The notes beneath the pieces were generated by a model. It saw only the letters and a program-made list of their open reading frames with translations, ran no database searches and was not told where the DNA came from. A stretch of 64,000 bases of DNA from Bacteroides eggerthii (lineage in GTDB: Bacteria > Bacteroidota > Bacteroidia > Bacteroidales > Bacteroidaceae), in NCBI RefSeq assembly GCF_025146565.1, contig NZ_CP102258.1, forward strand, positions 62,001-126,000. The letters run 5' to 3'. Positions 60,268-62,555 of this stretch are shown here, piece by piece (position 1 is the stretch's first letter; each line of letters begins with the position of its first letter). Position numbers and translations under genes: made by a program.

Positions 60268-60903
60268 TTAGAATTTCTTCCCGAACGCTATATTCATAAA
60301 CGTCATAAAAAGTATCTTGATGTCAAAGCCCCAAGAACGGTGTTCCAGATAGAACAAATCGTAACGCAGGCGGCGGAGCATTTTCTCCAAAGTATCGGTA
60401 TAACCATTGTAAAGAGTGGCATATGATGTGACGCCCGGACGGATCTGGAACAAATAACGATAGCGAGGATCCTCCTTCATTATTTGGTCGATAAAGAACT
60501 GACGTTCGGGACGGGGACCGATAAAGGCCATATCACCACAGAACACGTTCCAAAGCTGGGGAAGCTCATCCAAGTGGTGGTCGCGAAGAAAACGGCCTAC
60601 TTTAGTCATACGGGAGTCTCCCTCACCGGCATACAGGGCCGGGCCATGCTTCTCAGCATCCAGCTTCATACTGCGAAACTTATAGATGTTGAAAGGACGA
60701 CCGAAACGCCCGATACGCTCCTGCTTGAAGATAGCGGGACCACCGTCTTCACGCTTCACTGCTATATAACAGAGTAAAAATAAAGGAGAAAAAACAATGA
60801 GCGCGCCAAGGGCCAGAATACAGTCGCCGATACGCTTTACGTTACGCTCAAAGGCATTCATTCCGTCGGGAATGAAATGATCATCCTTCTCAATTGGTTC
60901 CAT
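60268..60903 (-). CDS. Initiating sugar-phosphate transferase (bacterial sugar transferase)
   Basis: 211 residues, the short form with one N-terminal membrane-dipping helix (about 26-50). It has I-F-K-Q-E-R-I-G-R-F-G-R-P-F, Y-K-F-R-S-M-K, H-H-L-D-E-L-P-Q-L-W-N-V and G-D-M-A-F-I-G-P-R-P-E-R. The D-E pair is catalytic in the PglC/WcaJ group. It loads the first sugar phosphate onto undecaprenyl phosphate and so starts the capsule repeat unit. It is the third gene of the locus, after upxY and upxZ. Confidence 0.95.
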   Translation of the reverse strand: MEPIEKDDHFIPDGMNAFERNVKRIGDCILALGALIVFSPLFLLCYIAVKREDGGPAIFKQERIGRFGRPFNIYKFRSMKLDAEKHGPALYAGEGDSRMTKVGRFLRDHHLDELPQLWNVFCGDMAFIGPRPERQFFIDQIMKEDPRYRYLFQIRPGVTSYATLYNGYTDTLEKMLRRLRYDLFYLEHRSWGFDIKILFMTFMNIAFGKKF

Positions 60904-60940
60904 AAAAATATAAAAGTCTTAGTTTAGTTCTATTTTCTTC

Positions 60941-61423
60941 CTATTCTATCACTTCGTAAGGATAAGGGTTCTCCTCAATGTTACGAAGCTCTTCAATGAT
61001 CTCGGCCTGTCCGGAGGACAATGAGGTATTGTCCCAGCTCCCTATTATCTCGTGGGCTTCACGAAGCAAGGCCTCTTCATAGACCTCACCATAGCAATAA
61101 GTGAGCAAGCGCACTTTCAGCAAGGAGGCGGGAAGCTGTTCGAGCACCTCAAAAGCACGATCAAGCACAGACTGCTTATTACGCTCCTTATTACCGTAGT
61201 CATAAATCGTGGCATTATAACCTAAAAGGAGAGCCAGACAGAGATTGGCCTCTTCATCGGAGGTGCTACCCCGGAGCAAGAAAAGAGAATCGCACTCCAG
61301 AAGGACATCCTTATTCAAACGGCAAAAGGTGTCTGAATAGATAGGCTCACCGTCTACACCAAGATAAATCAGCTCGTGAGCCAAACGCTGGAGCTCAAGA
61401 GCACGAGAAGTCAAATTATTCAT
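60941..61423 (-). CDS. upxZ: UpxZ-family capsule regulator
   Basis: 160 residues. It has L-Q-R-L-A-H-E-L-I-Y-L-G-V-D-G-E-P-I-Y-S-D, L-C-L-A-L-L-L-G-Y-N-A-T and a helical C-terminal part with L-L-R-E-A-H-E-I-I-G-S-W. In B. fragilis, UpxZ proteins block the antitermination activity of UpxY proteins of other capsule loci, so that one capsule is mostly made at a time. It is second in the operon, 55 bp after upxY. Confidence 0.9.
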   Translation of the reverse strand: MNNLTSRALELQRLAHELIYLGVDGEPIYSDTFCRLNKDVLLECDSLFLLRGSTSDEEANLCLALLLGYNATIYDYGNKERNKQSVLDRAFEVLEQLPASLLKVRLLTYCYGEVYEEALLREAHEIIGSWDNTSLSSGQAEIIEELRNIEENPYPYEVIE

Positions 61424-61478
61424 TGAGAAAGGGATTTTGATGGAATATTATTGTTTCTTGAAAACAATGTTTGAATTA

Positions 61479-62012
61479 TTACTTGATTATCTTCAAATAA
61501 GATTTGGGAACCTTGACACTTGCGGTCAGGATGTCCTTGATACGGATAACGACATACGTCCTGTTGGCATTTGTGGCAACCTCGCCTTCAACACCGGTGA
61601 GATCGCCCTTGACAACACGCACCCTGTCGCCTACAACAAGGGAGCCATTGTCGAAGCTGACACCGTCGGGATTCAGGTCCATCACGAACATGAAATCGGA
61701 CATCTGTTTGTCCGGAACCACAAGCATGGAACGGGTGAAGAGGTCTTTCATATAGAAAAGACGCACGCCATAGACATTGGAAAGGTCGCAGGCCGTCTGC
61801 TTGGTGGTACGGATAAAGACCAGATTGCGGATGACAGGGACTTCACTGCGCTTGCGGCGGTACTTCAACTGGGAAACCACAATACGGGTGGGAAGGTAAT
61901 AATCGACATCCAAATGCTCCTCAGACTTCAACCGGGAAAGGGATTTGCATATGGCAAACTCCTGCTTGTCACGAGTGCGGGCAGCAAACCAATATTTCTG
62001 TGTTTCAGACAC
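61479..62012 (-). CDS. upxY: UpxY-family transcription antiterminator (NusG-like)
   Basis: 177 residues. The N-terminal NGN domain (about 5-105) has Y-W-F-A-A-R-T-R-D-K-Q-E and Y-Y-L-P-T-R-I-V. The C-terminal KOW domain has G-D-R-V-R-V-V-K-G-D-L-T-G-V-E-G. It is the first gene of the capsule locus. Each UpxY lets RNA polymerase pass the leader of its own locus, so expression depends on both this protein and the invertible promoter upstream. The 5' leader (62013-62150) carries a 9-bp hairpin. Confidence 0.95.
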   Translation of the reverse strand: MSETQKYWFAARTRDKQEFAICKSLSRLKSEEHLDVDYYLPTRIVVSQLKYRRKRSEVPVIRNLVFIRTTKQTACDLSNVYGVRLFYMKDLFTRSMLVVPDKQMSDFMFVMDLNPDGVSFDNGSLVVGDRVRVVKGDLTGVEGEVATNANRTYVVIRIKDILTASVKVPKSYLKIIK

Positions 62013-62061
62013 TTAAAAGTAATATAATTTAAAGGAATCCTTCGGGTTAGGGTGCGCTTCG

Positions 62062-62096
62062 CGGTTTGAACGGGACATTTCTGACCATTCAAACCG
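62062..62096 (-). promoter_or_regulatory. Hairpin in the upxY leader
   Basis: CGGTTTGAA (62062-62070) and TTCAAACCG (62088-62096) are perfect inverted 9-mers with a 17-nt loop in the 5' leader of the capsule operon. UpxY acts on such leaders; this stem may be the pause or recognition element. Confidence 0.45.
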
Positions 62097-62150
62097 TACG
62101 ATGTTAGTTTAGCGTCTATAAAGTATTGCAAACGAATGAGTTAAAAGCAA

Positions 62151-62174
62151 AAAGTGTTTTTTAAACGTTCGTTT
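62151..62174. repeat. Left inverted repeat of the invertible capsule promoter
   Basis: 24 bp, identical to the reverse complement of 62363-62386 except for one base. It contains AAACGTTCGT, which fits the ARACGTWCGT core described for Mpi sites in B. fragilis. Confidence 0.8.
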
Positions 62175-62362
62175 AAAAAACACCTCTTTTACAGATTTCT
62201 CCAACACGTGAAATTGTTAAAATATAAACGCATTTATTTCAGAGCGCTACGGAAGCAATGCATTAATAATCAAAGCAATGTATCTAAATAAAAATAAATC
62301 ATCCATTTATTTACATCAAATATTTTGCCAATAATAAAAACACTCGTATCTTTGCGTTTATC
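62175..62362. promoter_or_regulatory. Invertible promoter segment of the capsule locus (188 bp)
   Basis: The AT-rich segment is bounded by the two 24-bp inverted repeats and holds one full promoter at 62324-62354 near its right end. In the present orientation the promoter points right, away from upxY (OFF). Inversion would place it next to the left repeat, reading into the upxY leader (ON). No recombinase gene is in the window, so a distant Mpi-like invertase would be needed. Confidence 0.75.
62324..62354 (+). promoter_or_regulatory. Capsule promoter, currently in OFF orientation
   Basis: TTTG (62324-62327), then exactly 19 bp, then TATCTTTG (62347-62354): a perfect Bacteroides -33/-7 pair. 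Transcription would start about 62361 and run to the right into a terminator at 62506-62555, with no gene in between. Confidence 0.8.
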
Positions 62363-62386
62363 AAACGAACGTTCAAAAAACACTTT
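62363..62386. repeat. Right inverted repeat of the invertible capsule promoter
   Basis: 24 bp, the inverted partner of 62151-62174 with one mismatch (23/24). The core on the minus strand is GAACGTTCGT. Confidence 0.8.
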
Positions 62387-62505: not shown

Positions 62506-62555
62506 AAAGAGAACCCTATCGGAGGTATTTTTGCATACCTGACAGGGTTCTCTTT
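62506..62555. terminator. Terminator between the capsule promoter region and the S41 protease gene
   Basis: AAAGAGAACCCT (62506-62517) pairs with AGGGTTCTCTTT (62544-62555), and an inner AGGTAT/ATACCT stem (62523-62528, 62535-62540) extends it. It ends the leftward S41 protease transcript and would also stop rightward transcription from the OFF-oriented promoter. Confidence 0.75.

What the first reader, a model, noticed from the sequence alone, without database searches (positions are those of the whole stretch)
62151..62386. Phase-variable capsule promoter, caught in OFF orientation
Seen: 24-bp inverted repeats (23/24 identical) bound a 188-bp segment containing a perfect TTTG-N19-TAnnTTTG promoter that points away from upxY. 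The repeats carry AAACGTTCGT/GAACGTTCGT. Known: in B. fragilis most capsule loci have such invertible promoters, and Mpi acts on repeats with an ARACGTWCGT core. Inference: this capsule is phase variable and silent in the sequenced orientation. No recombinase gene is adjacent, so the invertase must act in trans.
Basis: partly seen in the sequence, partly recalled or inferred. Interest (0 to 1): 0.72.

Follow-up and report, generated by a model that had tools for sequence, protein, structure and literature searches.

The report
Mpi-type invertible capsule promoter in Bacteroides
This is a small flip-switch of DNA that turns one set of sugar-coat genes on or off in a gut Bacteroides; it is a well-known kind of switch, but in this genome several coat loci share nearly the same second-layer control genes, which could make them less exclusive than the textbook model says.

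Summary
The genome has nine such site pairs, seven of them in front of its seven upxY-upxZ loci (2 ON, 5 OFF). A 198-aa serine invertase in synteny with B. fragilis mpi lies 2.3 Mb away on the contig. Across 149 Bacteroides genomes, site pairs and this invertase co-occur (20 of 27 versus 2 of 122). An orthologous locus inverted between two genomes places the exchange inside the 8 bp ACGTTCGT. The window's own segment was seen only OFF, here and in B. propionicigenes, so its inversion is inferred. As a kind it is known: Mpi switches are published for B. fragilis, Mpi-like ones for B. intestinalis. Less expected is what lies next door. The window and two distant loci share a 1.9-kb upxY-upxZ-sugar transferase block at about 99.3% identity behind different promoter segments, and two further loci share identical UpxY and UpxZ. 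Seven capsule loci thus have only four UpxY/UpxZ types.

The parts
62151..62181 (+). upxY-proximal recombination site arm (core 62163-62172, central dinucleotide TT 62168-62169)
62356..62386 (-). distal recombination site arm (core 62365-62374, central dinucleotide 62368-62369)
62168..62369 (.). invertible segment counted from the central dinucleotides (202 bp)
   Evidence: boundaries inferred from crossover mapping at another locus
62324..62354 (+). Bacteroides promoter TTTG-N19-TATCTTTG, pointing away from upxY (OFF)
62506..62555 (+). strong hairpin with U-rich tail, a likely terminator that would stop OFF-orientation transcripts before the neighbouring gene
   Evidence: I4; -25.4 kcal/mol, z -4.3; the simple terminator scan did not list it
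62013..62167 (-). leader between the proximal site and upxY
62062..62096 (-). leader hairpin CGGTTTGAA..TTCAAACCG followed by CGAAGCGCACCC, conserved in class-1 upxY leaders
   Evidence: (I7)
61479..62012 (-). upxY (177 aa, GTG start)
   Evidence: NF033644 156 bits, cutoff 100; PF02357
60941..61423 (-). upxZ (160 aa)
   Evidence: PF06603 148 bits, cutoff 21.2
60268..60903 (-). initiating bacterial sugar transferase (211 aa)
   Evidence: PF02397 202 bits
53379..60073 (-). capsule biosynthesis genes: pyruvyl transferase, flippase, glycosyltransferase, reductase, nucleotidyl transferase-like (below cut-off), HAD hydrolase, kinase-like
60268..62181 (-). block shared at about 99.3% with the loci at C1:1.886 Mb (L049) and 2.663 Mb (L050)

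Best explanation
An Mpi-family serine invertase encoded 2.3 Mb away on the contig (G000:C1:2434088-2434681) cuts both arms at the central TT/AA of ACG-TT-CGT and inverts the 202-bp piece between them. In the assembled orientation the promoter fires towards 62577 and a strong hairpin, so the capsule operon is OFF. After inversion it would start RNA near the proximal arm and read through the leader hairpin into upxY, upxZ and the capsule genes, where UpxY would add antitermination. Shown here: sites, promoter, orientation, genome-wide site set, invertase orthologue, co-occurrence across the genus, crossover position in an orthologous pair of another locus. Inferred: that this invertase acts on this segment, the exact cut at TT, and that the operon is silent when OFF.
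For: Nine site pairs against 1 for the reversed pattern. All 7 UpxZ loci found in the genome lie behind a pair; the other two pairs lie beside a DUF3575 gene and between two glycosyltransferase genes. Five upx loci OFF, two ON. Invertase synteny with B. fragilis mpi. 149 genomes: a pair in 20 of 27 with a match of at least 65% identity and in 2 of 122 others (Fisher p 6e-17); two or more pairs in 17 of 27 and 1 of 122 (p 1.5e-14); neither corrected for kinship. Crossover: L118/L127 (B. fragilis Q1F2 versus G081; UpxY identical, flanks 89% and 99%) have the segment inverted at 97%, with switch points at -4 and +4 around TT, so the exchange lies in ACGTTCGT; L115/L123 (UpxY 98%) are inverted too, and so is the paralogous segment of L051 against L052, where the distal flank is shared at 86%.
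Against: The window's own segment was seen only OFF: in G000 and in its B. propionicigenes orthologue L089 (99% identical segment, same orientation), the only other full-length match in 158 genomes (which scored 3 candidates per genome and capped its list). Seven genomes with an orthologue of 81-84% identity have no ACGTTCGT pair; only two of them (G043, G047) show one pair of a relaxed pattern. The reversed control pattern hits 15 of 149 genomes once each, so the four genomes with a single pair prove little. Two paralogues, 54% and 53% identical, are also in the genome.
Confidence: 0.9

Rival explanations
1. The segment is inverted by one of the Mpi paralogues (L009 at 1.834 Mb, L011 at 1.793 Mb) rather than by the mpi orthologue.
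For: Both are 53-54% identical serine recombinases in the same genome.
Against: L009 has its own adjacent inverted repeat with a different core (AAATCGTTCGTT, L058:9338-9356/9489-9507); none such was listed beside L011. Of the 23 genomes whose best match to the orthologue is only 44-57% identical, 1 (G143) has a site pair.
Confidence: 0.06
2. The segment is a relic: sites and promoter are intact in sequence but locked OFF in this lineage.
For: OFF in both genomes that hold it; the right arm carries GAACG, where the other arms aligned have AAACG or AGACG.
Against: Arms, spacing and promoter are intact; the deviating base is outside the 8-bp exchange region; the invertase frame is intact.
Confidence: 0.06
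3. The inverted repeat is a chance match or a terminator-like structure.
For: The left arm is itself nearly palindromic and the terminator scan lists it on both strands.
Against: Best chance arm in 20 shuffles of the window is 20 of 24; eight further pairs with the same extended sequence and spacing.
Confidence: 0.01

Closest known systems
Mpi-controlled invertible capsule promoters of Bacteroides fragilis
   Same: serine invertase; several ACGTTCGT-core pairs around segments of about 200 bp; TAnnTTTG promoter; upxY-upxZ downstream; invertase gene with the same downstream neighbours
   Different: different species; at the invertase gene no tyrosine recombinase stands head-to-head as in B. fragilis, a sugar transferase gene stands there instead; nine site pairs versus 13 regions reported for B. 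fragilis (PMC4747536, passages)
Phase-variable capsule loci PVR7-12 of Bacteroides intestinalis
   Same: 183-186 bp invertible promoter between GTTCGTTTAA repeats, which are part of the extended site here; at least two Mpi homologues in the genome; transcription start inside the proximal repeat (PMC8375218, passages)
   Different: there the inversions were detected by sequencing and RNA-seq; here only an assembled sequence
Tyrosine-recombinase capsule switches of B. thetaiotaomicron and B. xylanisolvens
   Same: invertible promoter before upxY
   Different: other repeats (GTTAC type), mostly with an adjacent recombinase gene (PMC12118408, passages)

Membership tests
Mpi-type invertible promoter | ACGTTCGT core with a non-palindromic centre in both inverted arms | tested here: met
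   both arms. For the nine pairs TT was part of the search pattern; that all 7 UpxZ loci, found independently, carry such a pair is not by construction
Mpi-type invertible promoter | full printed consensus ARACGTTCGT in both arms | tested here: inconclusive
   left arm fits; right arm GAACGTTCGT departs at its first base. Consensus as printed for B. fragilis in PMC8375218 (passage)
Mpi-type invertible promoter | promoter TTTG-N19..20-TAnnTTTG inside the segment | tested here: met
   62324-62354
Mpi-type invertible promoter | orthologue of the Mpi serine invertase in the genome | tested here: met
   198 aa, 78% to B. fragilis Q1F2, synteny
Mpi-type invertible promoter | many sites spread over the chromosome | tested here: met
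   nine pairs
Mpi-type invertible promoter | both orientations occur at this locus | tested here: inconclusive
   only OFF found, in two genomes; inversion seen at other loci; no reads
Mpi-type invertible promoter | inversion depends on Mpi | not testable with these tools
   needs a deletion mutant
upxY-upxZ capsule locus | UpxY and UpxZ as the first two genes, capsule genes behind | tested here: met
one-locus-one-UpxY model of capsule control | UpxY and UpxZ unique to the locus | tested here: not met
   UpxY and UpxZ 100% identical to those of L050 and 99.4% to those of L049

The most novel reading that the evidence does not exclude
The capsule loci of this genome form regulatory groups rather than mutually exclusive singles. 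The block from the promoter-proximal Mpi site through leader, upxY, upxZ and the initiating sugar transferase is copied between loci, while each locus keeps its own invertible promoter. A UpxY made from any ON member could then antiterminate all members, and their shared UpxZ would not inhibit them, so two or three capsules could be made together. UpxY specificity may come down to a few leader-hairpin classes (three seen here) instead of one per locus.
Probability: 0.4. Interest if true: 0.6.

Novelty: new member of a known kind. Interest (0 to 1): 0.36.

Why it matters
The switch itself extends the Mpi system to another Bacteroides, with support from related loci for where strand exchange occurs. 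The shared upxY-upxZ blocks matter more. Current accounts say that UpxZ proteins repress non-cognate loci so that one capsule operon is transcribed per cell (PMC12118408, passage). Seven loci with four UpxY/UpxZ types, three of the loci with practically one type, offer a natural test of that rule, and the leader-hairpin classes point at what UpxY may recognise.

Tried and rejected
The bare 10-bp core was tried as a genome marker and dropped: 48 places versus 52 for its reversed control. The 31 unpaired places, in 28 stretches and including TA-centred cores, were checked for an inverted partner within 900 bp as far as the stretch reached; none was convincing (best 16 of 26). Chance origin of the arms was rejected. 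A relaxed pattern (GTTCGTTTA pairs) in 11 genomes, 7 of them Mpi-positive without pairs, matched in only 2, so those seven remain largely unexplained. Inter-locus exchange by Mpi itself was considered for the shared 1.9-kb block. The block begins at the proximal site, but homology also ends there, so ordinary gene conversion explains it equally well. Papers recalled but not held: Coyne 2003, Chatzidaki-Livanis 2009 and 2010, Jiang 2019, Saba 2024; a sixth id was not held either.

Full report
What is there. The window is bases 62001-126000 of a single 4.21-Mb contig. At 62151-62386 two arms in inverted orientation (31 nt, 90% matching) enclose a segment with one exact TTTG-N19-TAnnTTTG promoter on the + strand (62324-62354). 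It is the only arm pair of this quality in the window; 20 dinucleotide shuffles reached 18-20 of 24. On the - strand to the left follow upxY (NF033644, above its cut-off), upxZ (PF06603), a sugar transferase and capsule biosynthesis genes. To the right is the 3' end of a gene on the - strand with weak similarity to C-terminal processing peptidases, below the family cut-off. Between the promoter and that gene lies a hairpin of -25.4 kcal/mol (z -4.3), which could stop transcripts made in the OFF state; the simple scan did not list it.

The sites are a genome-wide set. The 10-bp core alone is no better than its control (48 versus 52), but the paired pattern gives nine places against one for the control. 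The TT centre is part of that pattern, so it is not an independent result for the nine; no TA-centred pair turned up around the unpaired cores. Around the core the nine pairs share a longer, nearly palindromic sequence. Seven pairs lie before upxY-upxZ, and these are all seven UpxZ loci that a separate family search found in the genome. Five are OFF, including the window, and two are ON. The other two pairs lie beside a DUF3575 gene (promoter facing away) and between divergent GT11 and GT90 glycosyltransferase genes, where the switch would serve one gene or the other. A non-palindromic centre is what a serine invertase needs to tell orientation (general knowledge of the family).

The invertase. 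Ten PF00239 matches are in the genome, none in the window. The 198-aa one at 2.434 Mb is 78% identical to a B. fragilis Q1F2 protein and shares downstream neighbours with it: DUF308, then proteins that look like thiol peroxidase and DedA (only DUF308 of this genome was checked by family search; the other names are read by eye). In B. fragilis Q1F2 a tyrosine recombinase lies head-to-head with it, as a paper describes for mpi (PMC4747536, passages); at this genome's locus it is replaced by a sugar transferase gene. By eye, the protein also fits the mpi primers printed in PMC10939037 (passages). In 149 Bacteroides genomes, paired sites occur in 20 of 27 with a match of at least 65% identity, in 1 of 23 with a weaker match (44-57%) and in 1 of 99 with none at E 1e-40 (Fisher p 6e-17 for 20 of 27 versus 2 of 122, kinship not corrected). 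The reversed control pattern hits 15 of 149 genomes, once each, so single pairs are weak evidence; with two or more pairs required it is 17 of 27 versus 1 of 122. Results against: seven Mpi-positive genomes lack pairs, and a relaxed pattern found one pair in only two of them.

Inversion and crossover. The window's segment is in the same OFF orientation in its only close orthologue, L089 of B. propionicigenes (99% identical), so inversion at this very locus is not shown. It is shown by comparison elsewhere. L118 of B. fragilis Q1F2 and L127 of genome G081 have identical UpxY, distal and proximal flanks at 89% and 99%, and a segment that matches at 97% only when inverted; L115/L123 likewise (UpxY 98%, proximal flank 94%, distal flank in two pieces at 89% and 78%, segment 83% inverted); and within this genome L051 and L052 share the distal flank at 86% and the segment at 90% inverted, though their UpxY proteins differ. 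In L118/L127 the outer half-sites stay with the flanks from position -4 and the inner half-sites move with the segment from +4, so strand exchange lies within ACGTTCGT.

Neighbouring surprise. From the proximal site to the end of the sugar transferase (62181-60268), the window is 99.3-99.4% identical to two other capsule loci at 1.886 and 2.663 Mb (L049, L050), while the promoter segments and distal flanks differ. UpxY and UpxZ of the window and L050 are 100% identical and those of L049 99.4%; L052 and L054 are a second pair at 100%. At L049 the upstream flank and segment match B. propionicigenes L090 at 95.2%, the block only at 84-87%, and the genes further down again at 83-88%; so the block was replaced independently of both flanks in one of the two lineages, most simply by gene conversion in this one. 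Which lineage changed was not polarised with an outgroup. Of seven genomes examined (41 loci: all UpxZ matches for six, four of six for G138), three have UpxY pairs of at least 98%: this one, G062 (four loci) and B. fragilis Q1F2 (one pair, UpxZ only 77%). Two identical UpxY proteins in B. xylanisolvens are already in print (PMC12118408, passages), so the sharing as such is not new.

Leaders. The leader of the window holds a hairpin followed by CGAAGCGCACCC. Leaders fall into three motif classes in 37 of 41 loci (4 unassigned; the motifs were written down after looking at the leaders, and several loci are near-duplicates); UpxY proteins are at least 55% identical within and at most 52% between classes. 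Linkage alone can produce this match. In the window's class, 10 of 15 leaders tested keep the stem in 94% of cells, with 4 of 12 pairs changed on both sides (3 of 500 shuffles as high; related sequences, so not a probability). That nascent-RNA hairpins help UpxY is, as I recall, in Saba et al. 2024, which is not held here; I could not check whether the classes are described there. Four searches of the open library on UpxY with hairpin, leader, identical or gene conversion showed no such account in their listings or in the passages I opened; PMC7819879 and PMC7593976, which they listed, were not opened, and most subscription papers are not held.

Verdict. The finding is correct and ordinary in kind. 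Mpi switches in B. fragilis (PMC4747536; PMC12632263, passages) and Mpi-like switches in B. intestinalis (PMC8375218, passages) are known, and UpxY genes near invertons were catalogued in a defined community (PMC11892184, passages). The added value is the site set of one genome, the crossover mapped in a relative and the regulatory grouping by shared upxY-upxZ blocks.

Noticed in passing
L058:8672-9507 (G000:C1:1833671-1834506): Mpi paralogue L009 is followed by its own inverted repeat (19 nt, 95%, 132 nt apart, core AAATCGTTCGTT) with, by eye, a TAATTTTG box facing the recombinase gene, before genes that look by eye like outer-membrane or fimbria genes: perhaps a local one-enzyme switch.
   Followed up: partly
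L021:1501-1684 (G000:C1:824918-825101): Mpi-type segment between divergent GT11 (fucosyltransferase-like) and GT90 genes, so that inversion would swap which gene is read; by eye similar segments are in G018, G022 and G056.
   Followed up: partly
L020:444-1707 (pair at G000:C1:270400-270606): Mpi-type segment beside a DUF3575 gene, promoter facing away from it.
   Followed up: partly
L052 and L054 (G000:C1:2607297 and 3407193): Two capsule loci in opposite chromosomal orientation share 1.65 kb at 98% including the invertible segment; such repeats could also drive large inversions of the chromosome.
   Followed up: no
window:62062-62096 and leaders of 37 of 41 loci: Three classes of upxY leader motif that coincide with three UpxY protein groups.
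   Followed up: partly
L119 and L120 (G124, B. fragilis Q1F2): Two loci have UpxY 98% identical but UpxZ only 77%: antiterminator and inhibitor can be uncoupled.
   Followed up: no
G035, G042, G043, G047, G057, G073, G087: Genomes with an Mpi orthologue of 81-84% identity but no ACGTTCGT pair; their sites may differ.
   Followed up: partly
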